Assembly: GCA_018645325.1 (NCBI GenBank)
Contig: JABGOU010000001.1
Span: forward strand, 1-64,000
Direction: 5' to 3'
Length of the DNA: 64,000 nt
Source of the DNA: Desulfobacula sp.
GTDB taxonomy: Bacteria > Desulfobacterota > Desulfobacteria > Desulfobacterales > Desulfobacteraceae
The position numbers and the translations under genes were made by a program. The notes beneath the pieces were generated by a model. That model saw nothing but the letters and a program-made list of their open reading frames with translations. It did no database searches and was not told the origin of the DNA. Of this stretch, positions 9,927 through 57,112 are shown one piece after another. Each line of letters starts with the position of its first letter. Within the stretch, counting starts at the first letter, position 1.

Positions 9927-10061
9927 GTAATTATTCAACTCTTACGCTTGAAACCGCCCTGTCTGATGGATATTTGTTTCGATGCTAAACGCTTAACCTC
10001 CTGCAAATATAAATCAGACAGGGCTTTGGGGATAACTTTTTTTAACGGGCTGAACAATTAC
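9927..10061 (-). mobile_element. 135-bp palindromic MITE, copy 1 (IS66-like ends)
   Basis: First of five related elements. Its ends are GTAATTATTCAACTC and (reverse complement) GTAATTGTTCAGCCC. The flanks are AAAAATTT and AAATTTTT, an imperfect 8-bp duplication (6/8). Inside are two arms, GCCCTGTCTGATGGATATTTG and its inverted partner, with two mismatches in this copy. It lies between the AEC carrier (start 9857) and the FadR-type regulator (end 10114). No coding capacity. Confidence 0.85.
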
Positions 10062-10113
10062 AAATTTTTTTGTATTCATAAACATGTTTTTGTAAATCCA
10101 AAATAATCCAATG

Positions 10114-10821
10114 CTATTTTGATTTCTTTTCAAAAAACTTATGGATTCGGGATAGAACATTATCCAGATGAATATTCATTTTCTCCCGGGCCAGAGCTGG
10201 ATTTTTATCCTTTATGGCCCGGTATATTTCTTTATGCTCCTCCAATATTTCTATACTTTCACTGGTTTCATAGCAAATACCAACGGTACTCTGGATAAGT
10301 GCATATATGGAAAACATTAAATGGGTTTGTATTTTATTATGGGTTGCTCCGGATATTAATAGGTGGAATGCTGCATCATCTTCTATAAGGCTCTTTTTTT
10401 TTGTGATCACCTTTTCCATGGATTCAATATTCAGCCCCAACCGTTTGATATCATCTTTTGTTGACCTTTGGGCAGCGTAATAAGCATTCCAGGACTCCAA
10501 GCACATCCTGACATCATGGACCTCTAAAACAGTATTTATGTCTTCTTTTAAAAGGCGGCGAATAGGCTCTATAAAGCTACCCGGTACGAGTGATTTAACC
10601 CGGGTACGTTTTCTTTGAGAGATCTCCACAAATCCAATGGTATCGAGAATTTTCAATGCTTCCCTCAATGAGGACCGACTCACACCAAAAAACTTCATCA
10701 GCTCCCTTTCAGAAGGAAGCGGATCTCCTGGGTTTAAGTCACCCTTAATGATATGAGCCTTTATCTGATCAACAATCAAGCTTGAAACTTTAACTTGTTT
10801 AATGGGTTGAAAATTTGTCAT
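10114..10821 (-). CDS. FadR-subfamily GntR transcriptional regulator (FCD domain)
   Basis: 235 aa. The N-terminal winged helix (residues ~8-75) has the GntR signature LNPGDPLPSERELMKFFGVS followed by SRSSLREALKILDTIGFVEI. The C-terminal ~150 residues are an all-helical FCD ligand-binding domain (the LEVHDVRMCLE region, then AAFHLLISGATHN with metal-site histidines). Relatives such as LldR, GlcC and PdhR respond to lactate, glycolate or pyruvate and bind TGGTnnnACCA-like palindromes. Four such sites occur in this window at 19982-19998, 20131-20147, 35771-35787 and 35921-35937. A GGGTGAAAG ribosome site precedes the ATG. Its own target and ligand are inferred. Confidence 0.88.
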   Translation of the reverse strand: MTNFQPIKQVKVSSLIVDQIKAHIIKGDLNPGDPLPSERELMKFFGVSRSSLREALKILDTIGFVEISQRKRTRVKSLVPGSFIEPIRRLLKEDINTVLEVHDVRMCLESWNAYYAAQRSTKDDIKRLGLNIESMEKVITKKKSLIEDDAAFHLLISGATHNKIQTHLMFSIYALIQSTVGICYETSESIEILEEHKEIYRAIKDKNPALAREKMNIHLDNVLSRIHKFFEKKSK

Positions 10822-10847
10822 TTTTCTTTCACCCTTATCATTTACTT

Positions 10848-11007
10848 AGTCTTTGAACGAAAACTTACTCATCTACTGCGTTGCTGCAAAATTTTGCCAA
10901 GTCATAAGATCGGGCCTCATGTAGAGAAGTACACTCCGGTTTCAAACTTTCTTGCGCCTTGTATATGAGCAATTTTTCATCCAAATACGGGTTTTCGGTC
11001 AGGTACT
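10848..11007. mobile_element. 160-bp MITE-like repeat with inverted ends
   Basis: The left end AGTCTTTGAACGAAAAC and the inverted right end AGTACCTGACCGAAAAC are imperfect inverted repeats. The element is flanked by a short direct repeat, ACTT (10844-10847 and 11008-11011). It fills most of the 300-bp gap between the FadR-type regulator and glcF. A similar end sequence occurs alone at 53239-53262. No open frame of note. The 4-bp duplication could be chance. Confidence 0.5.
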
Positions 11008-11121
11008 ACTTATATTTGGGTTAACGGCAAGCCACTACAATGACCGGCTATTAATGAACCAAATATTTACAATTTATTTTAATTTTTATCAAAAACCTTC
11101 TTCATAATCTATATAATAAAA

Positions 11122-12384
11122 TTATTTTTTATTTACATTAGAACCTGTTACAATCTCAGATATGTGACAGACCTTTGTCTTCATTCCATGCCGCCGGACA
11201 CCATGGGACAATTGAATCATACAGGCAGGACAAGAGGTCACCAGAAGATCCGCTCCTGTGGATTCCACATTTTTCATCTTTCTATCCAGCACCTTCATGG
11301 AAAGATCATAGTGGGTCAATGCATAAGATCCCGCTCCTCCGCAGCACCAGTCAGCTTCCGGCATTTCTCTAAATTCCACTCCGGAAACTGCCTTTAAAAT
11401 TTCCCTGTTTTCTTTGGATATTCCCTGACCGCGAACCGCATGACAGGGATCATGATACGTCACGACAACAGGTGATTTGCTTGGAACTGCTGCATATTTG
11501 TTTTTAAAAAGAAATTCCACCATATCCTGGAAAAGGGGAACCTGGCTCTTGGCAAAATCATGATTGTTTTTATCATCTTCAAATACTTTAGCATATTTTT
11601 TTAAAAATGCAGCACAGCTTGAGCAGTCTGTGACAATTACATCTAAGGATTGGGATGAAAAGATTTCAAGGTTTTTCAATGCAAGTTTTTGTGCTGCATT
11701 GATATCACCATATGTCCAGGCAGGCAGACCACAGCAGCAGTTATCAAGAACTATCACTGTTTTACCGATTTCTTTCAGTATCTTTAAACTTGCAAACCCA
11801 GCCTCCTGTTGTATAACATCAACACCGCAGCCTACGAAAAAACCAATGCGGAGCGACTCTCCCTGCCCTTTGTAAACACCTGGTTTAACAATTCCCCTAA
11901 AAGGTTTAGGGGGAAGTTTTTCAACAATGTTTTCAGCTTTAGCAAAATCCCTGCCCAGAATCCTTAAAAGGCCCAGAGCCTTGGCAACCTTTGACATACC
12001 TGAATTTTTTCCCAGGGCAGCTGCCCGTGCTGCCATGTGTAACCGCTTGGGATAGGGAAGCAATTGTTCAAACAGCAGTTTATGAATGGGTTTTCTTCCG
12101 ACTTTTTCCAGATATTCTGCTCGGCCCTTAATGACGAGATCAGGCGTAGGAACGGCACCAAAACAATTGGAAGTACAAGCGCCGCACCCCAGGCAATTAA
12201 ATAATGGATCTTCCAGTTCCTTGGACCATTGAACCCGGTCTTCTATAATGGCGCGCATCAATGCAAGCCTTCCTCTGGCAACACCGGATTCATGGCCTGT
12301 TGAACGAAATACGGGACAGGCCACCTGGCAAAAACCGCATTTATTACATTGTGAGATTGCGTCATAATCCTCAATAATATTCAT
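11122..12384 (-). CDS. glcF: Glycolate oxidase iron-sulfur subunit (GlcF-like)
   Basis: 420 aa. Two N-terminal [4Fe-4S] motifs, CNKCGFCQVACP (residues ~14-25) and CLGCGACTSNCFG (~65-77), are followed by two CCG domains (CCCGLPAWTYG and CCGGAGSYALTHYD). This is the standard GlcF layout. It should accept electrons from the flavin subunit and pass them to a quinone or another carrier. The GlcD-GlcE fusion lies 20 bp upstream in the same direction, so the two form an operon. An AAGAAGG ribosome site precedes the ATG. In the second cluster the usual Pro after the last Cys is replaced by Phe-Gly. D-lactate is an alternative substrate for the complex. Confidence 0.88.
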   Translation of the reverse strand: MNIIEDYDAISQCNKCGFCQVACPVFRSTGHESGVARGRLALMRAIIEDRVQWSKELEDPLFNCLGCGACTSNCFGAVPTPDLVIKGRAEYLEKVGRKPIHKLLFEQLLPYPKRLHMAARAAALGKNSGMSKVAKALGLLRILGRDFAKAENIVEKLPPKPFRGIVKPGVYKGQGESLRIGFFVGCGVDVIQQEAGFASLKILKEIGKTVIVLDNCCCGLPAWTYGDINAAQKLALKNLEIFSSQSLDVIVTDCSSCAAFLKKYAKVFEDDKNNHDFAKSQVPLFQDMVEFLFKNKYAAVPSKSPVVVTYHDPCHAVRGQGISKENREILKAVSGVEFREMPEADWCCGGAGSYALTHYDLSMKVLDRKMKNVESTGADLLVTSCPACMIQLSHGVRRHGMKTKVCHISEIVTGSNVNKK

Positions 12385-12404
12385 AGGATACCTTCTTATT
12401 TATT

Positions 12405-15023
12405 TTAAACATCCATATTTTTCAATTGTGGCAAGCGTCCGGGTGCAAACAGAGAACCCGGATCAAGGGCTTTTTTAATCTTGTGCATCATTCGCCATTC
12501 AGGCCTTGGGGTTCCTCCGAAAACATCTTGTTCCCGGCGAAATGATTCGGGTGATTTTTCAAGCTGCACATGGCCGTTGCAGGCAATGGCAGTTTGCGTC
12601 ATTGTTACCCAGGCATCTTTATCCAGTGAATTTAAAGAAGCAAATATCCGGCCACATCCAATATCGAGGAACCATCCGGACGGGCGTATTTGAATCTGAA
12701 TATCATTAATCAAGTCCGGCATCTTTTCAGTGGATACACCGGCCCTTAAGATATAAGACGCAAGGCCGATTTTATTAAACTCATCCTTAAAACATCCGTC
12801 AACCATGTCGTAGTTATAAGCTTTTCCTTCCTTTAATGTATTTTCCGAAAGCAGATCTTGACATGCCTTAACCTGGTGTTCAACCACCATGGAAAGGCCT
12901 TCAAAACCCACGACAATTTTCCATTCACCAGGTAATTGTTCAGACACATCACCTGCTGGCACAGCTGCGATAAAGGTGGGAAACAGGTTGGATTTCATCA
13001 GTTTAAATGCTGCATCAAAACATGTTTTCAGATCTCCTTTGGCAGATGCAGCCCGACAAAGTTCAGGCATTGTGGAGACACGCCAGGTGATCTCACAAAT
13101 CATCCCAATAGCACCGTTGCTTCCTATCATCATACGGGTCATGTCATATCCGGCAACATTTTTAACCACCTTGCCTCCGGCGGAAATAATTCTTCCCCGG
13201 GCATCAATGTATTGAAGGCCCAGTGCGAAATCTCTTGGTGCGCCATAATACATTCGTTCCGGGCCGCTGACGCCCATGGCCGCCAGAGAGCCAATAGTGG
13301 ATTTTGCACTAAAAAAAGGAGGGCGTATGGGTAACCATTGATTATTTTTACCCAGAACCTTTTGAAGCTCCAGCAATGACATTCCCGCTCCAACAGTGAT
13401 ATACTGATTGGAAGTGTCATACTCGATGACCTCGGTCATGGCAAGCGTACTGACAGCCGTGTTTTTCTTTTTGCCAAGATTGCCGTAATGCCCGAAAGTA
13501 TTTGCCCCGGAGACAATCACAGATTTTCCTGAACTTTTGGCCTCCTTGATGGCTGCCATGGCATCGGCAACGCCTTTGGCTGATGCACCCCCCAACCGTT
13601 TCAATACAGTGGGTTCACCAGCTTCTAAAGGCTGGCCAGGTGTTTCTGGAAGGGGAATCACTTTATTTGGATTTAATAAATTTTGCGGGTCAAACGATAA
13701 CTTCAAACCCTGCTGGGTGTTTAAATCATCTCCGGAAAAAATCATCCGCATGCCTGCCTGTTTTTCCCGTCCAATCCCATGCTCCCCGGATATGGTGCCA
13801 CCTAACTCAACGCAGACTTTCATAATATCCCATCCCGCCTTGTGTACCTGTTCCAACTCCGCAGGGTTCCTGGAATCAAACAATAAAAGCGGGTGCAGGT
13901 TTCCATCACCGGCATGAAAAACATTACCAACCCTGCACCCATATTTTTCAGCAATGGCCTTTACCTGATCCAGGGCCTGGGGAAGATTTGTTCTGGGCAC
14001 GCAGGCATCGTTCACAAGATAATTGGGTGCCAGGCGGGCAATAGCACCAAATGCACCCCGCCGTCCCTGCCACAATCGATCTCGTTCTGCCTGATTCTTG
14101 GCGGTTTTGATGTTTCGGCAACGGGTATTCATGCAGATCTCTTTGATCTTGGCTGCCTGCTCCTTGAGACCGACAATCATGCCCTCTACTTCAATAATCA
14201 AAACTGCTGCCGCATCTGTGGGATATCCACAGGGTGCATTGGCTTCAACTGCTTCAATTACCGTGGCATCCATCATCTCCAGGGTATTGGGAATAATTCC
14301 GGCAGATATAATTTTTGAAACAGACTGGGCAGCTGCCTGAATATCGTCATAAACAGCTAACATGGTGATAACCGTTTCAGTTTTTGGCAGAATCCGCAAG
14401 GTCAATTGGGTTGTAATGGCAAAAGCTCCTTCACTGCCCACCAACAGCCCCCGAAGATCAAATCCGGGAGGGTCAAGGGCAGGACCCCCTATTTGTAAAA
14501 TTTCACCATTGGACAGAACCACTTCCATGCCCAGAATATGGTTGGATGTCACCCCATATTTCAGACAGAGAGGCCCTCCTGAATTTTCTCCTGCATTGCC
14601 TCCAAGGGTGGCCACTTTCTGGCTGGCCGGATCTGGCGCATAAAAGCTGTTAACCTTAGCCAGGGCCTGTTGGACTTCGAAATTGGTCACACCGGGTTGA
14701 ACCACTGCATACCGGCTCTCAGGAAAAATATTTAAAATCTTATTCAATCGAGACATGCAGATCACAAGACCTTCTGTGCTTGAAATAGTACCCCCTGAAA
14801 GGTTGGTACCAAACCCCCGAGGAATGAAGTCCACACCTGCTTTATTGGCTGCTTTGACGATTTTGGAAATTTCCTGTGTATTTGCCGGAAACACAACAAT
14901 TCCTGGATTACCTTTTACCAGTGAAGCATCATAGGAGTATAGTTCAATACCCGTAGTGGTCACAGAGACATTGGATTTTCCAACTATTGTTTCCAATTCA
15001 CGAATAAAGTTTTGATTAACCAT
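12405..15023 (-). CDS. Fused glycolate oxidase flavoprotein GlcD-GlcE
   Basis: 872 aa. The first ~465 residues are a complete GlcD: an FAD-binding type 4 domain (IPRGFGTNLSGG, ATLGGNAGENSGG) and an FAD-linked oxidase C-domain (HAGDGNLHPLLLFD, SGEHGIGREKQAG). After a short linker there is a second FAD-binding type 4 domain typical of GlcE (STIGSLAAMGVSG, KNVAGYDMTRMMIGSNGA) ending with the PEWRMMHKIKKALDP tail. E. coli makes these as separate proteins. With GlcF downstream this supplies all three parts of glycolate oxidase, converting glycolate to glyoxylate. GAAGGA precedes the ATG. The neighbouring malyl-CoA genes support glycolate over lactate, by inference. Confidence 0.9.
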   Translation of the reverse strand: MVNQNFIRELETIVGKSNVSVTTTGIELYSYDASLVKGNPGIVVFPANTQEISKIVKAANKAGVDFIPRGFGTNLSGGTISSTEGLVICMSRLNKILNIFPESRYAVVQPGVTNFEVQQALAKVNSFYAPDPASQKVATLGGNAGENSGGPLCLKYGVTSNHILGMEVVLSNGEILQIGGPALDPPGFDLRGLLVGSEGAFAITTQLTLRILPKTETVITMLAVYDDIQAAAQSVSKIISAGIIPNTLEMMDATVIEAVEANAPCGYPTDAAAVLIIEVEGMIVGLKEQAAKIKEICMNTRCRNIKTAKNQAERDRLWQGRRGAFGAIARLAPNYLVNDACVPRTNLPQALDQVKAIAEKYGCRVGNVFHAGDGNLHPLLLFDSRNPAELEQVHKAGWDIMKVCVELGGTISGEHGIGREKQAGMRMIFSGDDLNTQQGLKLSFDPQNLLNPNKVIPLPETPGQPLEAGEPTVLKRLGGASAKGVADAMAAIKEAKSSGKSVIVSGANTFGHYGNLGKKKNTAVSTLAMTEVIEYDTSNQYITVGAGMSLLELQKVLGKNNQWLPIRPPFFSAKSTIGSLAAMGVSGPERMYYGAPRDFALGLQYIDARGRIISAGGKVVKNVAGYDMTRMMIGSNGAIGMICEITWRVSTMPELCRAASAKGDLKTCFDAAFKLMKSNLFPTFIAAVPAGDVSEQLPGEWKIVVGFEGLSMVVEHQVKACQDLLSENTLKEGKAYNYDMVDGCFKDEFNKIGLASYILRAGVSTEKMPDLINDIQIQIRPSGWFLDIGCGRIFASLNSLDKDAWVTMTQTAIACNGHVQLEKSPESFRREQDVFGGTPRPEWRMMHKIKKALDPGSLFAPGRLPQLKNMDV

Positions 15024-15064
15024 AGCTTTTCCTTCATTTAGCAGAACGGTTGGCCTGCGTCTTT

Positions 15065-15751
15065 TTAGATTTTATTCCATTTAACAGCCAGAAAAGCACC
15101 TTTGTCCGGGTAATTTTCATTTCCTTGACGTTCTATTTTTGCAATATCAGAAAGGCAATCTTCTTTTTGAAAATGAATCGCAGTTCTTACAACAGGATTT
15201 GCCGGGACAAGTGAACGCATTTCATCAGGAGATCTGAAAAAAATTTTTTTAAATAATTTGTGCCCTTTTTTTGCTGCATCAAGTCTTCTGTCTGCCCATG
15301 GACTCAGGCTGTTGAGGGTGGTTACCACAATAGACCCTCCTTTTTTAGTCACACGGTTAAATTCATCAATGGCTATTTTTGCATCTGTTGTAAATTCAAT
15401 AGCGGTCATGGACAAAACTTTATCAAAGGCGTTGTCTTCAAAGGGCAATGCACACATATCTGCACAAATACCGGTAAACACAGCTTGATTTGTTTTATCC
15501 ATAGCTTTTCTGAGCATGGGCCGGGAGATATCCACACCCGTAATAATAGGGCCCAAAGCCATCACATCAATGGTAAAAATTCCTGTTCCACAGCCCACAT
15601 CAAGAATTTTTTCTCTGGGAAGGGGATTTAGAAGTTCAAGCAGCACTTGGGATTCATACTGCTTGATAAGAATACCGCTCGGAGTTTCAAACCAGCTGTC
15701 ATACCTGCTTGTCCATGTATCAAAAAGAGTGTTGATCAACTTGTTTCCCAA
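15065..15751 (-). CDS. Class I SAM-dependent methyltransferase
   Basis: 228 aa. Motif I is ILDVGCGTGIFTIDV (residues ~49-63), followed by GVDISRPML (motif II) and the FDKVLSMTAIEF region (motif IV), a Methyltransf_11-type Rossmann fold. The substrate is unknown. The start is probably TTG at 15751, without a strong ribosome site. It ends 41 bp before the GlcD-GlcE fusion in the same direction and may head that operon; a role in glycolate use is not evident. Confidence 0.8.
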   Translation of the reverse strand: MGNKLINTLFDTWTSRYDSWFETPSGILIKQYESQVLLELLNPLPREKILDVGCGTGIFTIDVMALGPIITGVDISRPMLRKAMDKTNQAVFTGICADMCALPFEDNAFDKVLSMTAIEFTTDAKIAIDEFNRVTKKGGSIVVTTLNSLSPWADRRLDAAKKGHKLFKKIFFRSPDEMRSLVPANPVVRTAIHFQKEDCLSDIAKIERQGNENYPDKGAFLAVKWNKI

Positions 15752-15827
15752 AAGAGTTGCTTGAAAATAGTATTTATTAAATCTATCAAGTATTGTTTTA
15801 TATAAAAAATCAAATTTGTATGGCCGC

Positions 15828-16115
15828 CTAAATAACTGAATTAATTTTACTTTTCAGCGTAGCGTCCTTATCTCTTCTGTCATCTATTTTCAAATCAACA
15901 ACAACACGTTTTGCCCCTTCTTTAATGTGGGCAGCCCGTACCTCTTTTACCAGAGCAAACAAAGAATCCAGGTCAGGAACTTCAATAGCAGTGGAAAGTC
16001 CGCCAACGCTATAAGTATATCCTGAATCTTTTATTACCTGAATTCCTTTTTTCACAAATCTGCCTAAACTTGTACCTTCACCCATGGGATATACTGACAA
16101 TTGCGCTAGAAGCAT
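15828..16115 (-). CDS. MTH1187/YkoF-type thiamine-binding small protein
   Basis: 95 aa, matching the DUF77/MTH1187 family (90-100 aa, ferredoxin-like fold). Visible features are LAQLSVYPMGEGTSLG at the N-terminus, the YTYSVGGLSTAIEVPD core and VVVDLKIDDRRDK at the C-terminus. Family members bind thiamine or a related molecule and form tetramers; their cellular role is unclear. An AAGGAAAA ribosome site precedes the ATG. No TPP riboswitch was found upstream. Confidence 0.8.
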   Translation of the reverse strand: MLLAQLSVYPMGEGTSLGRFVKKGIQVIKDSGYTYSVGGLSTAIEVPDLDSLFALVKEVRAAHIKEGAKRVVVDLKIDDRRDKDATLKSKINSVI

Positions 16116-16172
16116 ATTTTTCCTTTTTTAAAATTAAGTAAAAAAAATAATTTGTTATGATCTGATTTTACA

Positions 16173-16200
16173 ATTACCATTACAATTATGCAATGGTAAT
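16173..16200. promoter_or_regulatory. Inverted repeat ATTACCATT...AATGGTAAT
   Basis: Two perfect 9-bp arms around a 10-nt AT-rich spacer, 58 bp upstream of the thiamine-binding protein start (16115). It could be an operator. It lies in the 16116-16479 gap, which otherwise holds only the structures listed at 16278-16360 and 16417-16449. Confidence 0.35.
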
Positions 16201-16277
16201 CCCACAGGGCCACGAATGTAAACAATATTTTGCTCTGCTATACGCTACAATGATTGTAATTGTCGGTACAGCAACTA

Positions 16278-16360
16278 GTTCGGGTCAGTTTGTCTTGGAT
16301 GAGCGTTTGGGACCTGTCAATTCTTCCCATCCAGCGATGGAAAGGTAAACTGACCTGAAC
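16278..16360. repeat. 83-bp inverted-repeat structure
   Basis: Outer arms GTTCGGGTCAGTTT (16278-16291) and AAACTGACCTGAAC (16347-16360) pair over 14 bp with one G/T-type mismatch. A smaller hairpin CCATC-CAGC-GATGG sits inside. It may be a relic mobile element or a folded RNA downstream of the malyl-CoA lyase gene. No known riboswitch signature was recognised. Confidence 0.4.
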
Positions 16361-16416
16361 GGGTATGGACGAATCATAAAAAAACTGCTTGCTATTGCCC
16401 TGGGTAATCCCATAAT

Positions 16417-16449
16417 GGGAGCCGGGCATAGTTTAACAACCCGACTCCC
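16417..16449 (-). terminator. Possible terminator hairpin after mcl
   Basis: GGGAGTCGGG and CCCGGCTCCC (minus strand) form a 10-bp GC-rich stem with one mismatch, 30 nt past the malyl-CoA lyase stop. There is no run of T after it, so intrinsic termination is uncertain. Confidence 0.4.
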
Positions 16450-16479
16450 AACTTTATCGTATGCCCATACCAATGCATA

Positions 16480-17367: not shown

Positions 17368-17417
17368 GATAAGTTTCTCCTTTTAATATGTTTAGTTATC
17401 TAATTATGCCTATTTAA

Positions 17418-18314: not shown

Positions 18315-18326
18315 CGTATCCCCCTG

Positions 18327-18611: not shown

Positions 18612-18623
18612 TTGTTTTTCCCT

Positions 18624-39813: not shown

Positions 39814-39822
39814 ACATCAGAG

Positions 39823-39957
39823 ATAACTATTCAGCTCTTATGCTTGAGACCGCCCTGCCTGATGGATATTTGTTTCGAGGCTATTCGCTTAACCTCCTGC
39901 AAACATCCATCAGACAGGGCTTTTGAGATAACTTCTTTTAGCGGGCTAAACAATTAC
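39823..39957 (-). mobile_element. 135-bp palindromic MITE, copy 2 (IS66-like ends)
   Basis: The element lies 9 bp past dctM and is flanked by an exact 8-bp direct repeat CATCAGAG (39815-39822 and 39958-39965). The left end is degenerate (ATAACTATTCAGC). The inner arms are GCCCTGCCTGATGGATATTTG and an inverted partner with minor differences. It is the most diverged of the five copies, yet its target duplication is exact and non-AT-rich, which makes it the strongest evidence of transposition. Confidence 0.85.
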
Positions 39958-40077
39958 CATCAGAGTAAAATTTTTTGATAATCAAAGAAAGTATTTTATA
40001 AATTTAATGATCTATCCTGATATCTTAGTCAGGGTAGATCATTTTTACCAGTGTGATATGGAGTAATTAAAAACCTG

Positions 40078-43118: not shown

Positions 43119-43153
43119 AATTTTACACATAATATTAGTTAGTAAATTATTTT

Positions 43154-43288
43154 GTAATTGTTCAGCCCGTTAAAAAAAAATGTCCCAAAAGCCCTGTCTG
43201 ATTGATATTTGCAGGAGGTTAAGCGAATAGCCTCGAAACAAATATCCATTAGACAGGGCAGGTTCAAGCGTAAGAGTTGAATAATTAC
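43154..43288 (+). mobile_element. 135-bp palindromic MITE, copy 3 (IS66-like ends)
   Basis: Ends are GTAATTGTTCAGCCCGTTA and (inverted) GTAATTATTCAACTCTTA. It is flanked by an exact 8-bp duplication ATTATTTT (43146-43153 and 43289-43296). It lies 37 bp upstream of the sigma-54 promoter of the mtg operon. The internal palindromic arms are near-perfect. Confidence 0.88.
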
Positions 43289-43324
43289 ATTATTTTTTCA
43301 TAAAAAATCTACAAATTTTACTCC

Positions 43325-43388: not shown

Positions 43389-44810
43389 ATGTACGATCGA
43401 ATGCAGGAACTGAGTACTGAAAACATGCAGAAGATCCATACCACGGCCATGGAGCTTCTAAAGGACACCGGCGTTTCCTTTAAAGAAGAAGAAGCCGTTG
43501 ATATTTTCAAATCCAACGGACATAGAATAGAAGGAACCACGGTTTTTTTTAAAGAATCCGACATTCAAAAAGCATTAGAAACCGCACCCAGGAGGTTTAC
43601 AGTCCATGCAAGGAATCCGGAAAAAAACGTGGAAATTGGAGAGAATGATTTTGTCTTCCTGCCCGGATACGGCGCCCCTTTTATCATGGATGCCCAAGGC
43701 AGTCAGCGCCAGGCCACCATGGAAGATTATGATAATTTTTGCAAGCTGATTCAGACCTCTCCTCATATCAACATGAATGGATGGATGATGGTGGAACCGG
43801 CTGACATGCCCCATGAAACCGTCCATCTGGATCTGAACCTGTCAAATATGCTTTTGTGCGATAAACCCTTCATGGGCAGCCCTGTCTCTCGTCAGGGCGC
43901 TGTGGATGGAATTGAAATGGCAGGCATTCTCTGGGGCGGCAAGGAAAATATAATGGACAAGACAGTATCCGTCTCTCTGATTAATTCCCTTTCCCCTCTG
44001 CAGTTTTCTGAAGAAATGGCCGGTGCCCTTATTGAACTTGCACGCCACAACCAGGCCTGCGTGGTTGCTTCCCTGATCATGGCCGGCGGATCAGGCCCTG
44101 TTACCCTTGACGGTGTTCTCGCCCTTCAGAATGCAGAAATTCTGGCCGGTATCACACTGGCTCAGCTTGTCAGACCTGGCGCGCCCGTGATTTATGGCTC
44201 CACTTCCTCTGCCATGGATATGCAGACAGGGGCTTTGTCAATCGGTGCACCTGAATTGTGTAAAAATATTCATCTGGTAGCCCAGATGGCAAGGTTTTAC
44301 AACCTTCCTTCCAGATCCGGCGGATCCCTGACAGATGCCTTATTTGCCGATGCCCAGGCTGGTGCTGAGTCTGCCCTGGCCCTTTCCACTGCTGCAAGAA
44401 GCGGAATTAATTTTATTCTTCACTCCTGTGGAATCCTTGGCTCCTATATTGCCATGAGTTTTGAAAAATTTATCATTGACGAAGAAGTCTGCGGTATGGT
44501 CCGAAGCATGATACGCCCCTTGGCTCTTACGGATGAATCCATTGACATTGACGTGATCAAAGAAGTGGGTATTGGAGGCCAGTACCTGACACATCCAAAA
44601 ACTTTCCAGCTCTGCCGGACTGAATTTTTTATGCCCGCGCTGATGAGTCGAAAAAATCCGGATGCCTGGACAAAAGACGGGAAAAAACGAATAGACCAGA
44701 TTGCTGAAGACAAAGTTGCCCTGCGCTTGGCTTCATATGAAAAACCTGATATAGATCCAAAAATTGAAAAACAATTAACCGAATATGTAGAAAAGCATAA
44801 AAACACTTAA
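43389..44810 (+). CDS. mtgB: Non-pyrrolysine MttB-family methyltransferase (glycine betaine-type MtgB)
   Basis: 473 aa, the usual MttB/MtgB length. The frame is uninterrupted, so there is no amber codon and no pyrrolysine, unlike true trimethylamine methyltransferases. Features include GYGAPFIMDAQG, LSIGAPELCKNIHLVAQMARFYNLP and ILHSCGILGSYIAMSFEKFIIDEEV. It heads an operon with a corrinoid protein and a methyl-THF-forming partner, the classic MtgBCA set that demethylates glycine betaine to dimethylglycine. Other betaines (carnitine, proline betaine) are possible. A sigma-54 promoter lies 48 bp upstream, and AAAGGAG precedes the ATG. Confidence 0.87.
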   Translation: MYDRMQELSTENMQKIHTTAMELLKDTGVSFKEEEAVDIFKSNGHRIEGTTVFFKESDIQKALETAPRRFTVHARNPEKNVEIGENDFVFLPGYGAPFIMDAQGSQRQATMEDYDNFCKLIQTSPHINMNGWMMVEPADMPHETVHLDLNLSNMLLCDKPFMGSPVSRQGAVDGIEMAGILWGGKENIMDKTVSVSLINSLSPLQFSEEMAGALIELARHNQACVVASLIMAGGSGPVTLDGVLALQNAEILAGITLAQLVRPGAPVIYGSTSSAMDMQTGALSIGAPELCKNIHLVAQMARFYNLPSRSGGSLTDALFADAQAGAESALALSTAARSGINFILHSCGILGSYIAMSFEKFIIDEEVCGMVRSMIRPLALTDESIDIDVIKEVGIGGQYLTHPKTFQLCRTEFFMPALMSRKNPDAWTKDGKKRIDQIAEDKVALRLASYEKPDIDPKIEKQLTEYVEKHKNT

Positions 44811-46380: not shown

Positions 46381-46404
46381 TTTTCTTTAAAAGTAAAATT
46401 ATTT

Positions 46405-46538
46405 GTAATTGTTCAGCCCGTTAAAAAAATTATCCCCAAAGCCCTGTCTGATGGATATTTGCATGAGGTTAAGCGTTTAGCATCGAAACAAATATCCATC
46501 AGACAGGGCGGATTCAAGCGTAAGAGCTGAATAATTAC
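46405..46538 (+). mobile_element. 134-bp palindromic MITE, copy 4 (IS66-like ends)
   Basis: Ends are GTAATTGTTCAGCCCGTTA and (inverted) GTAATTATTCAGCTCTTA, flanked by an exact 8-bp duplication AATTATTT (46397-46404 and 46539-46546). Inner arms GCCCTGTCTGATGGATATTTG and its perfect reverse complement flank a 26-nt centre. It lies between the convergent mtgA terminator and the usp gene. Confidence 0.9.
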
Positions 46539-46671
46539 AATTATTTTTTTTATCTTGTTTTAAAAATTCACATCTCTAAAAAATGCATAAAAGAACCTGC
46601 AAGTACAACAAAAATCAGCAAACTGACTGCCAATGCTATCATCCCTAAAATTTACAGCTTTCTTTTGTGTG

Positions 46672-47061: not shown

Positions 47062-47118
47062 AATCCTCCTTTGTATGGTGTGATTTATTTCTCATTTCTC
47101 ATAGTTCAAAATTCAAGG

Positions 47119-48051: not shown

Positions 48052-48069
48052 ATCCTTATTCTCCTTATT

Positions 48070-48840: not shown

Positions 48841-48854
48841 TATTTGGTTTCCTT

Positions 48855-51275: not shown

Positions 51276-51463
51276 TATTAATAAATCTCCTTTAATTCAA
51301 TTGGCCAATACTCTCTGCCATTAAAAAAATAGTGTAAAATTATATTTTTTGTTTTTCTAATATTCATTTCATAAAACAATTAAGGAAATCCCCCTGGATA
51401 ATATATCATTACCAGGATTAATACCAGGGCGTAAATAACGCACACAATCAATCGGGAATTCTA

Positions 51464-51481
51464 TTGCAGGTTGTATGCCAA
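51464..51481 (-). promoter_or_regulatory. Sigma-54 promoter of the dmgdh-etfBA operon
   Basis: On the minus strand TTGGCATACAACCTGCAA has GG and GC separated by exactly 10 bp, close to the TGGCAC-N5-TTGCA consensus. It is about 190 bp upstream of the dehydrogenase start (51275). The second sigma-54 activator gene ends 160 bp to the right. No other feature was found in the 51276-51641 gap. Confidence 0.75.
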
Positions 51482-51641
51482 AGTGGCTTCTTTATATTTG
51501 ATGAAAAACAAAAAATCAAGTAATTTTATAGAACAAAACAGCAGTCAGAGCGTTTATTTTTTAACCATCACACAGTATATAGGAATGAACATCTTAAATA
51601 TTATGTATATCATTTCATTGTTTACCCTGGCGTTGCAAAAG

Positions 51642-53069
51642 TCATGAAGACTCTTTTCGCCTCAGCCTGTATTTTTTCAGCTTATAATGGAAAGACTGGG
51701 GTGAAATACCTAAATTTCTGGCAGCTTTTGCCGCATTGCCGGAGGCCGAGTTTAAAGCATTGACAATTATCTGTCTTTCATTTGCCGCCTGGGTTTGGGC
51801 CAGGTTTGAAGAAAAGACATCTTTGCCGTGCATCAGGGTGTGGGAAGCCTTTACTTCAAGCGTTTTTAGCAGATCTTTTTTTGCAAATGAAAAAATATGG
51901 GATGGCAGATGCGCAAACCTGATAGTTCTGCCTTTGGCCACCACATTCATTGAGGCTTCAATAACATGTTTGAGTTCTCTGACATTCCCGGGCCAATGAT
52001 AACGCCTGAACAAGTCTAAAACACTTTTTGATACATTTCCTACCTCTACATTTAATATTTTATTATATTCCAAAATAAAATACCGGACCAGTTCATCTAA
52101 TTCACCTTTTCTTTCCCTTAAAGGCGGCAGCATGATGAAAACCACTCCCATCCTGTAAAACAGGTCCATTCTTAATCTACCCTTCTGGATAGTTTCCAAA
52201 GGAGGATGCCCCACTGAGCTGATTATTTTTATATCCAGATCAATTTCTTTTAACGAGCCAAGCTTTCTAACCTTTTTCTCCTGAATAACCCTTAAAAGCT
52301 TAACCTGAAGTGTCATTGGCATGGAATCCAATTCATCTAAAAAAATGGTCCCCCCATCAGCCTGCTCAAAAAGGCCACGTTTATTGATAGCACCGGTAAA
52401 CGCTCCCTTTGAAGTTCCAAACAAAATCCCTTCCAGAAGATTTTCAGGAATCGCCGCACAGTTTATCGGGATAAACGGCATTTTTCTTCTTGAGCTGTGA
52501 CTATGAATAGACTGGGCAAATAATTCTTTTCCAGTTCCAGTCTCACCATAAATCATGATTGGAGACGGCGAGTTAGATGACATGGTGGCAATCCGCACAG
52601 CATTGAGCATATCCGGATCTGATCCAATGATATCTGAAAAATGAAACAAGGCTGCGTTACCTGGTTTTTTTTTAAGGGGAGCCCTTATATCCTGGACAAT
52701 GGTTTTTTCCAGAAGCTGATAATCCTTGCAAAAATTAATTGCACCAATCAATATTCCTGATTTATACAAGGGGTAGACATTATTAATAATATTGGCTGCC
52801 TTACCCAGTTTGGTCTGGTACATCTTTGTTTCGTTCATTATGGATCGACCGCTTTTCAGGCAGCGCATTGTAGTGCTGGTATTATCGTTAAGCTTGTAAA
52901 TATCTAAAACTTTCTTTCCCATCACATCTTTTGGGTCTAAATCATCTATCCGGGCCTGGGTTTCGTTATAAAATCTTATTGTTCCTTTTTTATCTGCAAT
53001 CAATATCCCTTCATGCATGGAAGATAAAACCCTGTAAATATCAATATCCTCCAGATTAAGCTTTTCCAT
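51642..53069 (-). CDS. PAS-domain sigma-54-dependent activator (between the dmgdh and MttB-2 operons)
   Basis: 475 aa from the ATG at 53069, preceded by GGGTGGAT; a TTG at 53090 is the other candidate. PAS domain (GILIADKKGTIRFYN), AAA+ domain with GETGTGKE, GAFTGA, GTIFLDELDSMP and RMDLFYRMGVVFIMLPPLRER, and a Fis-type helix-turn-helix (AAKAARNLGISPQSFHYKLKK). It is a clear paralogue of the protein at 41518-43017. It sits between two predicted sigma-54 promoters (51464-51481 minus, 53294-53309 plus) and probably controls both neighbouring operons. Confidence 0.92.
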   Translation of the reverse strand: MEKLNLEDIDIYRVLSSMHEGILIADKKGTIRFYNETQARIDDLDPKDVMGKKVLDIYKLNDNTSTTMRCLKSGRSIMNETKMYQTKLGKAANIINNVYPLYKSGILIGAINFCKDYQLLEKTIVQDIRAPLKKKPGNAALFHFSDIIGSDPDMLNAVRIATMSSNSPSPIMIYGETGTGKELFAQSIHSHSSRRKMPFIPINCAAIPENLLEGILFGTSKGAFTGAINKRGLFEQADGGTIFLDELDSMPMTLQVKLLRVIQEKKVRKLGSLKEIDLDIKIISSVGHPPLETIQKGRLRMDLFYRMGVVFIMLPPLRERKGELDELVRYFILEYNKILNVEVGNVSKSVLDLFRRYHWPGNVRELKHVIEASMNVVAKGRTIRFAHLPSHIFSFAKKDLLKTLEVKASHTLMHGKDVFSSNLAQTQAANERQIIVNALNSASGNAAKAARNLGISPQSFHYKLKKYRLRRKESS

Positions 53070-53238
53070 TACATCCACCCATAAAATCAAAAAATTTTTA
53101 TAATTCTTTTTTCACTATCGCACCCTGCTTCAAATAAATGGCTTGTTTATAAAGGAAATGCAAGAAAAATCAAAAAATTTTTATTTTTTCAGCATTATTC
53201 AAACTTTAACCTCTCGGGTTTTTGACATTAGCCTATTT

Positions 53239-53262
53239 AGTAACTGACCGAAAACCCCTGTA
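53239..53262. repeat. Solo end of the 160-bp MITE-like element
   Basis: AGTAACTGACCGAAAACCCC matches the inverted right end of the element at 10848-11007 (AGTACCTGACCGAAAACCC) except for one base. It may be a deletion relic. It lies 32 bp upstream of a sigma-54 promoter. Confidence 0.4.
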
Positions 53263-53293
53263 TCTCTTAATAACCATTCCCAAAAAAACCATA

Positions 53294-53309
53294 TGGCATG
53301 GATCATGCA
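53294..53309 (+). promoter_or_regulatory. Sigma-54 promoter of the MttB-2 operon
   Basis: TGGCATGGATCATGCA has GG (53295-53296) and GC (53307-53308) with exactly 10 bp between, and 5 of 6 bases of TGGCAC are present. The MttB-2 ATG is at 53375. The rest of the 53070-53374 gap shows only the repeat end at 53239. Confidence 0.8.
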
Positions 53310-53374
53310 GATTTTGACACAACATCAAATATTTTACACATATTGACAACTATACAGACCAGGGGAGAAAGATC

Positions 53375-54793
53375 ATGAACTTTTTCGAATATTTTTCAAC
53401 CAGTGAATTAGAAAAAATTCACGAAGCTACGCTGAGGATAATGGAAACTACAGGCCTTAATTTTTCTTATGAACCCGCAAGAAATCTTTTTGCCGAGGCA
53501 GGCTGTAAAATAGAAGGTCAAAGGGTATTTTTTCCCAAAAAACTGGTTGAGGAACAGATCAAAAAAGCCCCTTCCCAATTCACTCTATATGGCAGAAATC
53601 CTGAAAAAAATGTGACCATTGGAGGTAATAACATGACCTTTGTTCCATGCTATGGAGCTCCTTTTGTCAATGACATGGATAAAGGCAGGCGTAAGGGAAC
53701 CCTTAAAGATTTTAACAATTTTGCTAAATTAGCATATGAAAGCCCAAACATGGACATAACCGGCGGTAACATGACGGAACCAAATGATATTCGGGTTGAC
53801 AATAGGAATGCTGAAAGAATTTATTCTTCCATGGTATTGTCTGACAAGCCTTTTATGGGAGCCGGAACCGGTGCAAAAGAAGCCAGACAAACAATTGAGA
53901 TGGCATCCATAGTTTTTGGAAGCACCAAAGAAATGGCAAAAAAACCTCCTTTCATAAGTATTCTATGTTCCTTAACCCCTCTGGGATATGATGACAACAT
54001 GTGCGGGGGTATTATGGAATATGCCAAAGCTGGAATGCCCCAGCTGATTTCTTCCCTTGCCATTGCAGGCGCTACATCGCCTGTCACCATGGAGGGAACT
54101 CTGGTTGTCCAGAATGCTGAAATACTGGCGGGTATCACATTGAGTCAGCTTGTCCGGGAAGGTACGCCCGTTGTATTTGCAGGGTCTTCATCCGCCACTG
54201 CCATGCGGTACGGCACTTTGAGTATTGGCGCACCGGAAATGGCAATCAATACAGCGGCAACCGCCCAAATGGGACGTTTCTATAACCTTCCTGTCAGGGG
54301 AGGAGGGGCACTTACTGATTCAAAAACTATTGATTCCCAGGCTGCCTATGAATCAATGATGAGCATGATGATGGCAACAATGAGCGGAATTAATTTTGTT
54401 CTTCACTCTGCCGGCATCCTTGAAAGCTATATCACGGCATCCTATGAAAAATTCATCATTGACGATGAAATCTGCGGGATGTGCAAAAGGATCAAACAGG
54501 GAGAAGAAATCACCGTTGAAAAACTTGCAGAGGATGCAATCAGGGAAGCAGGTCCAGGGGGTGAATATTTAACACATATGCATACCTTCAAACATTTTAA
54601 ACAGGCGCTTTATACCCCTGTTATGGATGGGCGAGACAATTTTACCAGCTGGAAAAGTAAAGGGGGCCTGACAATGGAGCATCAGGCCAATGCCAGATAC
54701 AAAAAAATCCTTGAAAACTATGAAGAACCTGATATGGATAACAATATCCGCAAGGATATTGATGCTTATATAAATGCAGTTAGAAACACTTAA
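53375..54793 (+). CDS. Non-pyrrolysine MttB-family methyltransferase 2
   Basis: 472 aa, no in-frame amber codon. Landmarks match the first homologue: CYGAPFVNDMDKG, LSIGAPEMAINTAATAQMGRFYNLP, FVLHSAGILESYITASYEKFIIDDEI. It has no corrinoid gene beside it and may use MtgC (44837-45472). It is first in an operon with a TIM-barrel isomerase and an enolase-superfamily enzyme, which suggests a betaine needing isomerisation or epimerisation, such as a hydroxyproline-, proline- or carnitine-derived compound. The substrate is unknown. AGGGGAGAA precedes the ATG. Confidence 0.87.
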   Translation: MNFFEYFSTSELEKIHEATLRIMETTGLNFSYEPARNLFAEAGCKIEGQRVFFPKKLVEEQIKKAPSQFTLYGRNPEKNVTIGGNNMTFVPCYGAPFVNDMDKGRRKGTLKDFNNFAKLAYESPNMDITGGNMTEPNDIRVDNRNAERIYSSMVLSDKPFMGAGTGAKEARQTIEMASIVFGSTKEMAKKPPFISILCSLTPLGYDDNMCGGIMEYAKAGMPQLISSLAIAGATSPVTMEGTLVVQNAEILAGITLSQLVREGTPVVFAGSSSATAMRYGTLSIGAPEMAINTAATAQMGRFYNLPVRGGGALTDSKTIDSQAAYESMMSMMMATMSGINFVLHSAGILESYITASYEKFIIDDEICGMCKRIKQGEEITVEKLAEDAIREAGPGGEYLTHMHTFKHFKQALYTPVMDGRDNFTSWKSKGGLTMEHQANARYKKILENYEEPDMDNNIRKDIDAYINAVRNT

Positions 54794-54809
54794 ATAAAAG
54801 GGGAATAGC

Positions 54810-55685
54810 ATGTTACTAGGCCTACACACATACAGCTTTCATTTGCACGGCATGGGACAAAACTGGGGAGGGCATGAACTCTCATGGCCAAGAGTAATGG
54901 ACATCTTCAAACTCATGGACTGGGCCGTGGACAATAGTGTGGACGGACTCCATATTACAGCCGTCGACTGTGAATCAACAGATGAGGCTCAGCTTATAAA
55001 AATCAAGGATGCAGCAAAAGATCATGGTCTTTTTCTTGAATACAATTTTTCCCTGGATGAAGAATTTGACCCGCGACTGACCCATACTTTAGAACAGGGT
55101 ATAAAAATTGCTCATACCCTTGGAACTGATATCGGAAAAGTCAGTTTAGATTTACGCCGTCCCCGTCCTCTTTGCGCAAGCCGTCATCATCCGGACATTA
55201 TGAAACAGCTTAATCATATTGCCGGGCTTACACGAAAAATTTTGCCTCTTTTAGAGGACACAGGTGTTAAGCTGGCATTTGAAAATCATACTGAATCTTT
55301 TGCCAGTGAAATTTTATGGCTGATCAATGAGGTTAAACATCCAAGTGTAGGTGCCTGTGTGGATACTGTAAATTCAGTAATGGTTCTGGAAGATCCCATG
55401 ACGGCCATTGAAACCCTGGCCCCAAGATCATTTACAAATCATTTTTGTGACCACAGAATGGAAAGGGACCAGTTCGGTGGCCGGTTTACGGGTGTGGCCT
55501 GCGGAGATGGTGACATAGATTTACAAAAAACTCTTGAAATTTTTAAAAACAAATCAAATATGAACCGGATCAACATTGAAGTGGAATGGGATGCAGGTGA
55601 CGATGGACCTGAAGCTGCAAGGAAAAAGGAATATGATGCAGTTGTAAAAAGTATTAAATACTGCAGAAACGTTTTAAACATTTAA
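54810..55685 (+). CDS. Sugar-phosphate isomerase/epimerase-like TIM barrel (xylose isomerase-like)
   Basis: 291 aa of the AP_endonuc_2/xylose-isomerase-like fold. Metal-site residues are plausible in LAFENHTESF (Glu), GACVDTVNSV (Asp), FTNHFCDHRM (His) and INIEVEWDAG (Glu). Members epimerise or isomerise sugars, keto acids or cyclitols. It starts 16 bp after MttB-2 and ends 21 bp before the enolase-superfamily gene. Specific substrate unknown. AAGGGGAA precedes the ATG. Confidence 0.83.
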   Translation: MLLGLHTYSFHLHGMGQNWGGHELSWPRVMDIFKLMDWAVDNSVDGLHITAVDCESTDEAQLIKIKDAAKDHGLFLEYNFSLDEEFDPRLTHTLEQGIKIAHTLGTDIGKVSLDLRRPRPLCASRHHPDIMKQLNHIAGLTRKILPLLEDTGVKLAFENHTESFASEILWLINEVKHPSVGACVDTVNSVMVLEDPMTAIETLAPRSFTNHFCDHRMERDQFGGRFTGVACGDGDIDLQKTLEIFKNKSNMNRINIEVEWDAGDDGPEAARKKEYDAVVKSIKYCRNVLNI

Positions 55686-55706
55686 TAATCTTTGGAGACC
55701 TGAATT

Positions 55707-56891
55707 ATGAAAATCACCGCTGTAAGGGCGACCCCTGTTAATATCCCTATGGAAGTACCATTTTACTGGTCTGTGGGGCTATATCCTGGAACCTCCAAAA
55801 CCATTATTGAAATAGAGACTGATGAAGGTATCATTGGTATTGGAGAAGCACCTTCATGGGATTGTGCAAATGTTATCAATAAAGATATGGGTCCCAGATT
55901 GATCGGTTGTGATCCTCTGGATATCACTGGTTGTGAAATGAAATGTGTACCAGAGTGGGTAGTTGTTCAGAACACGGATGACGCTTCTGTTGTAAAGGCA
56001 TTTGGCGGTATTGAACTTGCCCTGTGGGATATCCGGGGAAAAGCCTGGAATCAGCCAGTTTATAAACTTTTAGGCGGTGCCGTCAGAAAAGAGATTCCTT
56101 TTACTGAATATTTTGGGTTTCGAAGTAAAAAAAATGGAATTGGTGGCGAAACCTCTGCCGAACAGGTGGCGGATTATTGTATAAAAATGCGTGAAGAACA
56201 CGGTTCCACAATGTTTGAGGGTAAGTTAAGCCTGGGCGATCCCCATCTTGAAATTGCCACGGTAAAACTGTTGAGAGAAAGTCTTGGAGATACGGCTATG
56301 ATCAGGTTGGACTCAAATATGTCCTGGTCCCTACCCACGGCAAAACACATTTTACGAGAGATAGAGCCCTACAATATTCGAAATTATGAAGACCCGGTTT
56401 CAACCTTTGAACAGATGGCCCAATTAAGAAAGAATTGTTCTATTCCCTTTTCAACACATGTTCCTGATATCACACGAGCTGTGGCTTTGGGTGTGCCTGA
56501 TAATATTGTCACCAATTTTGCAGTACTGGGTGGCATAAGAAGAGCGATTCGTTTTATCGGTGCCTGTGAAGCCATGGGTGTCGGGTTCTGGTGTTACAGC
56601 GGTGATGCAGGGGTTTGTACTGCAGCATATCTTCATGTTGTTGCGGCAACGGAGTGGATTCACGAACCCAGCCAGTCGCTTTTCCGGTGGCAGACTGATG
56701 ATGTGATTGAACAAGGACCGTTCAGGCAGGTCAACAATGTTATTCAAGTTCCTGAAGGACCCGGCCTCGGTGTAAGCTTATCTATCCGGGGATTAAAGCG
56801 GTGCCATCAAAGATTTGTTGATGACGGCCCCATAAATCATTTTGTTAACCCTGGCAATCCGGGCAGATTTACCAGGCTACCCAGAAATTAA
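55707..56891 (+). CDS. Mandelate racemase/muconate-lactonizing (enolase superfamily) enzyme
   Basis: 394 aa. N-terminal capping domain, then a barrel with a K-x-K-like segment (FEGKLSL), Asp in MIRLDSNMSW, Glu in NYEDPVS and a third metal-site region around FSTHVPDI. A loop with GFWCYSGDAGVC follows. The enzyme abstracts a proton next to a carboxylate, as in epimerases, racemases or dehydratases. In an operon with an MttB homologue it may act as a betaine-acid epimerase, like 4-hydroxyproline betaine 2-epimerase, though the residues seen do not settle this. TTGGAGA precedes the ATG. Confidence 0.85.
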   Translation: MKITAVRATPVNIPMEVPFYWSVGLYPGTSKTIIEIETDEGIIGIGEAPSWDCANVINKDMGPRLIGCDPLDITGCEMKCVPEWVVVQNTDDASVVKAFGGIELALWDIRGKAWNQPVYKLLGGAVRKEIPFTEYFGFRSKKNGIGGETSAEQVADYCIKMREEHGSTMFEGKLSLGDPHLEIATVKLLRESLGDTAMIRLDSNMSWSLPTAKHILREIEPYNIRNYEDPVSTFEQMAQLRKNCSIPFSTHVPDITRAVALGVPDNIVTNFAVLGGIRRAIRFIGACEAMGVGFWCYSGDAGVCTAAYLHVVAATEWIHEPSQSLFRWQTDDVIEQGPFRQVNNVIQVPEGPGLGVSLSIRGLKRCHQRFVDDGPINHFVNPGNPGRFTRLPRN

Positions 56892-56977
56892 ATTTTGATG
56901 AACGTTTCTATTGAACCGGGTGACAGGGTACAATATCTAAAAAACCATCAACATCTGGAAAATTAGGATGATAAAAT

Positions 56978-57112
56978 TGTAATTGTTCAGCCCGTTAAAA
57001 AAAATATCCCTAAAGCCCTGTCTGATGGATATTTGCAAGAGGTTAAGCGAATAGCCTCGAAACAAATATCCATCAGACAGGGCGGGTTCAAGCGCAAGAG
57101 CTGAATAATTAC
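56978..57112 (+). mobile_element. 135-bp palindromic MITE, copy 5 (IS66-like ends)
   Basis: Ends are GTAATTGTTCAGCCCGTTA and (inverted) GTAATTATTCAGCTCTTG, flanked by ATAAAATT and AGAAAATT, an 8-bp duplication with one mismatch. The inner arms are perfect (GCCCTGTCTGATGGATATTTG and its complement). It lies between the enolase-superfamily gene and MttB-3, in a 282-bp gap with no other clear signal. Confidence 0.88.

What the first reader, a model, noticed from the sequence alone, without database searches (positions are those of the whole stretch)
9927..57112. Five copies of a 135-bp palindromic element with 8-bp target duplications
Copies at 9927-10061, 39823-39957, 43154-43288, 46405-46538 and 56978-57112 share GTAATTRTTCAGC ends and near-perfect inner arms. 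Target duplications are exact in copies 2, 3 and 4 (CATCAGAG, ATTATTTT, AATTATTT), one mismatch in copy 5 and imperfect in copy 1. GTAA ends with 8-bp duplications are the hallmark of IS66-family elements, so this is most likely a non-autonomous derivative. All five are intergenic, and the hairpin could also act in RNA.
Basis: partly seen in the sequence, partly recalled or inferred. Interest (0 to 1): 0.7.

Follow-up and report, generated by a model that had tools for sequence, protein, structure and literature searches.

The report
IS66-type hairpin MITE in Desulfobacula
The five repeats are copies of a small parasitic DNA element that cannot move on its own, belong to a family of at least 117 copies in this genome of an apparent marine sulfate-reducer, and were most likely spread by a jumping-gene enzyme of the known IS66 type; it is a new example of a known kind of mobile DNA.

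Summary
The five copies (134-135 bp; copy 5 starts one base later than stated) belong to a high-copy family: 117 core matches in the 4.39-Mb host assembly. The host appears to be a Desulfobacula species (inferred from named relatives).

Transposition is well supported. Of 98 complete copies with flanks, 63 have exact 8-bp duplications, against 0.33 expected from shuffled partners. The target is an A-rich/T-rich symmetric site. Two relatives read through without an insert at copies 2 and 3.

The IS66 reading is supported by a same-genus, single-ORF IS66 element: 1759 bp, ends GTAATTATTCAGC/GTAACTATTCAGC, exact 8-bp duplication. That layout matches the published ISBst12 group. No such transposase was found in the host assembly, and only about 13 terminal bases are shared, so mobilisation in trans is inferred.

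The element folds as a long hairpin, but host copies show no excess of compensatory changes. Copies avoid genes (2 of 98 overlap called ORFs, both weak), more than target preference predicts (31-51% intergenic).

Verdict: a new member of a known kind.

The parts
9927..10061 (-). copy 1 of the element (135 bp), between a Mem_trans (PF03547) transporter gene and a GntR/FCD regulator gene
   Evidence: flanks AAAAATTT (9919-9926) / AAATTTTT (10062-10069), 6 of 8 match
39823..39957 (-). copy 2 (135 bp), 9 nt after the stop codon of a TRAP DctM gene; one end is ATAACTATTCAGC, the form common in G014
   Evidence: exact duplication CATCAGAG at 39815-39822 and 39958-39965; L219 and L220 read through with one copy of the 8-mer
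43154..43288 (+). copy 3 (135 bp), between a sigma-54 activator gene and an MttB-family gene
   Evidence: exact duplication ATTATTTT at 43146-43153 and 43289-43296; L219 and L220 read through without an insert at 72% and 69% identity
46405..46538 (+). copy 4 (134 bp), between a pterin-binding-enzyme gene and a Usp gene
   Evidence: exact duplication AATTATTT at 46397-46404 and 46539-46546
46441..46461 (+). left inner arm of copy 4 (21 nt, pairs with 46489-46509)
   Evidence: fold; self-match
46489..46509 (+). right inner arm of copy 4
   Evidence: fold; self-match
46405..46417 (+). 13-bp terminal inverted repeat GTAATTGTTCAGC (partner GTAATTATTCAGC at 46526-46538 on the minus strand)
   Evidence: the minus-strand 13-mer is identical to the left end of the IS66 element in L123
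56979..57112 (+). copy 5 (134 bp), between an enolase-superfamily gene and an MttB-family gene
   Evidence: ATAAAATT (56971-56978) / AGAAAATT (57113-57120), 7 of 8 match

Best explanation
The repeats are a MITE, a short non-autonomous DNA transposon with no gene. Its 13-bp ends (GTAATTRTTCAGC) are, by inference, recognised in trans by a single-ORF (ISBst12-type) IS66 transposase, a DDE-type enzyme. The transposase joins the element to the two strands of an A/T-rich target 8 bp apart, and repair makes the 8-bp duplication. Transposition is shown by the duplications, the symmetric target site and the read-through sites in relatives. That the enzyme is of IS66/ISBst12 type is inferred from matching ends, matching duplication length and a transposase-bearing element in the same genus. 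The copies then seem to decay without selection on the hairpin; insertions in genes are probably lost by selection, leaving an almost purely intergenic set (both inferred).
For: Exact 8-bp duplications in 63 of 98 complete host copies (shuffle mean 0.33) and in 17 of 21 complete copies from three related genomes. Target, from the 63 exact cases: A-rich left half and T-rich right half of the duplication, with weaker A/T peaks 6-7 bp outside it on both sides. At copy 2, L219 (G021) and L220 (G014) read through with a single CATCAGAA; at copy 3 the same two read through without an insert. At copy 4 the gap between matching pieces is 82 nt in G021 and 94 nt in G014 and G040, too short for the 134-bp element. 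Same-genus IS66 element L123:757-2515: 1759 bp, one 471-aa ORF, GTAATTATTCAGC / GTAACTATTCAGC ends, TATAATTT on both sides; its ORF is PF03050 (E 9.1e-47) and NCBIfam IS66 transposase (E 1.6e-86). Single-ORF relatives elsewhere in the family have GTAACTACTCAGG or GTAACTRCTCRCCC ends with exact 8-bp duplications. Exact 13-mer end: 198 hits in the host, 40 in G021, 21 in G001; the reversed control gave 0 in these three and 1 in all 26 genomes. A published ISBst12-group IS66 element, ISDge4, has TIRs GTGACTACTCAGCA/GTAACTGCTCAGCA and an 8-nt repeat (PMC12898284, passages seen).
Against: No transposase of the L123 type is found in the host assembly even at E 0.01; it holds only two fragments matching PF03050, on one contig. 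Of the other three carriers, G014 and G021 have only weak matches to it (28-30% identity) and G011 has none; the PF03050 elements of G014 with visible ends have GTAAATATTCGG-type ends. The element shares only about 13 terminal bases with L123; the sequence inside differs. In 86 genomes of the family, the MITE's 26-bp right end (up to 3 mismatches) was found only in the four MITE carriers. Of 57 IS66 loci scanned for paired ends with a duplication, 19 showed them and 38 did not; two elements closer to L123 by protein (L192, 67%; L195, 61%) have both ends (GTATCTATTCAGCC; GTAACTATTCAGC) but no matching 8-bp flanks.
Confidence: 0.88

Rival explanations
1. It is a MITE moved by another IS family that also makes 8-bp duplications; the GTAA end is a coincidence.
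For: No matching IS66 copy was found in the host assembly; several other IS families make 8-bp duplications (recalled).
Against: The 13-mer is identical to the end of an IS66 element in the same genus that has its own 8-bp duplication, and single-ORF IS66 elements across the family have ends of the same general form.
Confidence: 0.08
2. It is a regulatory RNA or DNA element (bidirectional terminator, RNase-cut hairpin, REP-like site, promoter donor) kept by selection at its places.
For: Very stable fold on both strands. Only 2 of 98 copies overlap called ORFs, fewer than target preference predicts. Copies often lie just after stop codons (median 28 nt, 89 flanking 3' ends). Inner arms are less diverged (2.8-3.0%) than the linkers (6.7-9.7%). 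Promoter-like consensus matches overlap the ends of copies 2 and 3, in a stretch with 18 such matches against 8.8 (sd 2.7) in shuffles.
Against: Pairs changed on both sides are as often broken as kept (7 and 7 of 4694 cells), and single changes mostly break pairs (274 broken, 105 kept). No Rfam family matched in the window. The terminator scan found none inside copies 2, 3 or 4, though it only counts loops of 3-8 nt. No orientation bias in tandem settings: 22 same, 25 opposite. Two relatives lack copies 2 and 3.
Confidence: 0.03
3. The MITE ends can also move passenger genes: a 432-aa LarA-like gene on C35 is bounded by two MITE ends 1766 bp apart.
For: Inverted full TIRs at L224:1187 and L224:2952 with a 432-aa ORF between; the LarA name is by eye, not searched.
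Against: No target duplication. In G011, G014 and G019 the same gene lies beside the same downstream neighbour, with gaps of 111, 25 and 27 nt and no element match there, so two partial MITE insertions beside a resident gene explain it (inferred; the upstream side was not compared).
Confidence: 0.01

Closest known systems
ISBst12 group of the IS66 family (e.g. ISDge4 of Deinococcus geothermalis; PMC12898284, passages seen)
   Same: Ends of the form GTRACTRCTCAGCA, close to GTAATTRTTCAGC; 8-nt duplication; single-ORF layout as in the genus relative L123
   Different: The element here has no ORF, is 134-135 bp, is palindromic inside and is at very high copy number
MITECca01 of Cardinium (IS982-derived, 169 copies; PMC9769881, passages seen)
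   Same: Short IS-derived element, more than 100 copies, mostly intergenic
   Different: Different parent family (IS982); there intact copies of the parent are present in the genome
MITEPsy1 (100 nt) and MITEPsy3 (102 bp) of Pseudomonas syringae (PMC3189936 and PMC6053426, passages seen)
   Same: MITEs; MITEPsy3 has 78 copies in one lineage and none in a sister
   Different: MITEPsy1 is linked there to ISPsy2 (IS5) with CTAG or YTAA duplicated, MITEPsy3 probably to ISPsy25 (IS630), not to IS66

Membership tests
MITE (miniature inverted-repeat transposable element) | short (under about 300 bp), no transposase ORF | tested here: met
   98 complete host copies are 114-141 bp, 86 of them 134-136; no ORF of at least 90 aa overlaps the five window copies
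MITE (miniature inverted-repeat transposable element) | terminal inverted repeats | tested here: met
   13 bp GTAATTRTTCAGC at both ends
MITE (miniature inverted-repeat transposable element) | target-site duplication and empty sites in relatives | tested here: met
   63 of 98 exact; read-through sites for copies 2 and 3; copies 1 and 5 not tested for empty sites
MITE (miniature inverted-repeat transposable element) | an autonomous relative with the same ends able to supply transposase (expected, not strictly defining) | tested here: inconclusive
   none found in the host assembly at E 0.01, which is 157 contigs and 90.3% complete; one with the same 13-bp ends in a congener
IS66 family, ISBst12 group (as the mobilising family) | ends beginning GTAA | tested here: met
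   GTAA ends of IS66 elements in PMC12888890 (passages seen)
IS66 family, ISBst12 group (as the mobilising family) | 8-bp target duplication | tested here: met
   8 bp for two IS66 elements in a table of PMC3281130 (passage seen)
IS66 family, ISBst12 group (as the mobilising family) | single-ORF IS66 (PF03050) transposase gene within the element | tested here: not met
   the MITE encodes none, so it is not itself filed as an IS66 element, only as probably moved by one; the genus relative L123 with the same ends has it
IS66 family, ISBst12 group (as the mobilising family) | transposase acts on the MITE ends | not testable with these tools
   needs a transposition assay
REP/REPIN elements | small palindromes without target duplication, moved by a RAYT transposase (recalled) | tested here: not met
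   8-bp duplications present; RAYT genes were not searched for

The most novel reading that the evidence does not exclude
The 21-bp inner hairpin is a working part of the element and not a by-product. Its arms are unchanged in the consensus of both host subfamilies and of the G021 and G014 copies (the one G011 copy differs in the right arm), while ends, linkers and apex have changed. It may fold in transcripts or single-stranded DNA to raise transposition or to make insertions harmless by insulating neighbouring genes, which would make this a structured class of IS66 MITE.
Probability: 0.12. Interest if true: 0.55.

Novelty: new member of a known kind. Interest (0 to 1): 0.33.

Why it matters
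It documents a high-copy MITE tied by its ends to single-ORF (ISBst12-type) IS66 elements. In the held paper library I saw no description of an IS66-derived MITE: the 8 papers and the 2 were seen as listings, and five of those ten, plus PMC12898284, as passages; no paper was read whole, so this is a limited search. It explains many dispersed intergenic repeats, and probably some assembly breaks, in this lineage, and gives a readout of a target preference (A-rich/T-rich, symmetric about 8 bp) from 63 insertions.

Tried and rejected
Passenger-gene transposon on C35 (L224): rejected, because no duplication is present and the gene keeps its downstream neighbour in three relatives with no element match between.

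Functional RNA: no Rfam family in the window at gathering scores. In seven fetched loci, four matches below the families' own cut-offs carry miRNA or snoRNA names; three of them lie on MITE copies and I take them as hairpin resemblance only. Compensatory change: 7 pair-keeping and 7 pair-breaking double changes, so no support.

Presence in phages or plasmids (blastn, E 1e-5) or viral contigs (exact 25-mer): no match.

Autonomous partner with the MITE's 26-bp right end in 86 family genomes: hits only in the four MITE carriers. Only part of the host hits was listed in that call, and I did not check each host hit for a far-off second end, so a partner in the host is not fully excluded. The 13-mer list (partial for the host) gave one pair of IS-like spacing, the C35 case above.

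Rows dropped: one search counts (69 of 102, of which 90 are host rows) include 3 palindromic double counts, so I use the de-duplicated set (98 complete host copies; 22 partial rows, some of them two pieces at one locus, left out of the duplication count). The length table printed uses an added condition and is not used; duplication lengths come. Of the 117 core matches, 100 were listed; 120 host copies or pieces were gathered in all, some through 13-mer hits, so the copy number is a lower bound. Empty sites were not sought for copies 1 and 5.

The gene calls come from a home-made codon-usage caller. Of 98 copies, 93 lie between two called genes, 3 lack a called gene on one side, and 2 (L089, L094) overlap ORFs with weak scores (21 and 9). 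The expectations use the window only.
Full report
OBSERVATION. They are 134-135 bp, two on one strand and three on the other, with 94% mean column identity. Flanking 8-mers are exact for copies 2, 3 and 4, with one mismatch for copy 5 and two for copy 1, as stated.

GENOME-WIDE FAMILY. The window is bases 1-64000 of contig C1 (198,528 bp) of a 4.39-Mb assembly in 157 contigs, 90.3% complete. A 30-nt core with up to 3 mismatches occurs 117 times (62 forward, 55 reverse) and its reversed control 0 times. I gathered 120 host copies or pieces: 98 complete with flanks, 22 partial. Of 38 genomes searched with copy 4, 4 have it (4 of 23 in the genus including the host, 0 of 15 in other families). The right-end 26-mer is in the same 4 of 86 genomes of the family. 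That the host is a Desulfobacula is an inference from this.

TRANSPOSITION. Of the 98 complete copies, 63 have an exact 8-bp duplication; 2000 shuffles of partners gave a mean of 0.33 and a maximum of 3; five shifted registers gave 0. A further 20 copies match at 7 of 8 and 15 at 6 or fewer. By length, exact flanking repeats number 69 at 8 bp and at most 1 at any other length from 5 to 14, in the 102 rows. In relatives 17 of 21 are exact and the other 4 match at 7 of 8. The reconstructed target is A-rich in the left half of the duplication and T-rich in the right half, with weaker A/T peaks 6-7 bp outside it (the profile is symmetric by construction because both strands were counted). At copy 2, L219 (G021) and L220 (G014) read through with a single CATCAGAA; both also differ from the host by a 15-16-nt insertion or deletion a few bases to the left. 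At copy 3 both read through without an insert at 72% and 69% identity, and the 8-mer itself is not conserved. At copy 4 the joined query did not align across the junction, but the gap between matching pieces is 82 nt in G021 and 94 nt in G014 and G040, too short for the element.

WHICH TRANSPOSASE. In the genus, 15 of 26 genomes have PF03050 matches. One element, L123:757-2515 from G001, has GTAATTATTCAGC (identical to one MITE end) and GTAACTATTCAGC, a single 471-aa ORF and TATAATTT on both sides. Its protein is IS66 transposase by Pfam and NCBIfam. Of 57 IS66 loci scanned for paired ends with a duplication, 19 showed them (L123 and L190 are one element) and 38 did not, many being cut or partial. 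Family relatives with 32-45% identical proteins have GTAACTACTCAGG or GTAACTRCTCRCCC ends and exact 8-bp duplications. Two closer relatives (L192, 67%; L195, 61%) have both ends but no matching flanks. Many MITE copies in G014 and G021, and both matches in G011, have the GTAACTATTCAGC form of the end, the same as the right end of L123. A published single-ORF IS66 element of the ISBst12 group, ISDge4, has similar TIRs and an 8-nt repeat (PMC12898284, passages seen). Against this, the host assembly has no L123-type transposase at E 0.01, only two PF03050 fragments on contig C106, and the shared sequence is about 13 bp. Several MITE copies sit at contig ends (for example C4, C16, C32, C134 and C153), so multi-copy elements may be missing from the draft.

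HAIRPIN. Copies 4 and 5 fold with -55.8 to -65.8 kcal/mol as RNA on either strand, z -8.9 to -12.4, and copy 4 also as DNA (z -9.7). Divergence from consensus among 96 host copies is lowest in the inner arms (3.0 and 2.8%) and ends (3.2 and 4.1%), higher in the apex (5.9%) and linkers (6.7 and 9.7%). The inner arms are identical in the consensus of both host subfamilies, of the G021 and of the G014 copies; the single G011 copy differs in the right arm, and the apex differs between the two host subfamilies. Within the host, 274 single changes break a pair against 105 that keep it, and double changes are 7 and 7, of 4694 cells. At unpaired sites 48% of changes are transitions. This looks like decay without selection on pairing, though I did not compute a formal expectation. 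The arms may be kept at the level of active copies and not at insertion sites; that is the novel reading.

PLACEMENT. With a home-made gene caller, 47 of 98 copies lie between tandem genes, 25 divergent and 21 convergent; 3 lack a called gene on one side and 2 overlap weak ORFs. Uniform insertion predicts 9% intergenic; models of target preference predict 31%, 35% or 51% (window only). The remainder is probably loss of harmful insertions. Copies lie closer to stop codons (median 28 nt, 89 ends) than to start codons (median 105 nt, 97 starts), with no orientation bias in tandem settings (22 and 25). Promoter-like matches overlap the ends of copies 2 and 3 in a stretch that has more of them than shuffles do (18 against 8.8); the A/T-rich sequence may explain this.

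LITERATURE. Searches for IS66 with MITE, Desulfobacula with MITE, IS66 with GTAA or target duplication, IS66 with tnpC, non-autonomous or 8-bp, Desulfobacula with IS terms and ISBst12 listed no paper that I recognised as describing this element. Six papers were checked by passages (PMC12888890, PMC3189936, PMC12898284, PMC6053426, PMC3281130, PMC9769881), the others by listing only.

VERDICT. New member of a known kind: a high-copy MITE probably moved by an IS66 (ISBst12-like) transposase, with transposition well supported and the mobilising enzyme inferred.

Noticed in passing
window 16205-16402; also L006 1683-1978; pieces in L263, L091, L236: A second dispersed repeat with CAGGGC...GCCCTG ends, flanked by an exact 10-bp duplication (GGTAATCCCA in the window; ATTTTTATTC in L006). 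Matches to part of it lie in ten other places of the host besides the query locus, and in several relatives. It looks like a MITE of ISAs1 type (family ends recalled, not tested).
   Followed up: partly
L224:1187-2952 (G000 C35:16186-17951): A LarA-like gene (named by eye) bounded by two partial MITE copies in inverted orientation; most likely two insertions beside a resident gene.
   Followed up: yes
L225:1086-1152 (G000 C67:8985-9051): A 67-bp derivative in which the inner palindrome is missing but both 13-bp ends remain, with flanks that match at 7 of 8.
   Followed up: no
window 43389-44810, 53375-54793, 57174-58610: Two MttB-family methyltransferase genes (first and third), and an ORF at 53375-54793 that shares a 55-bp repeat with the first (not scanned), near a pterin-binding-enzyme gene: perhaps a methylamine-type demethylation locus.
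   Followed up: partly
G000 contig C106 (L053) 3115-3381 and 7754-7828: Two pieces matching the IS66 transposase model about 4.4 kb apart, with three ORFs on the opposite strand between them that look by eye like tyrosine recombinases (not searched).
   Followed up: no
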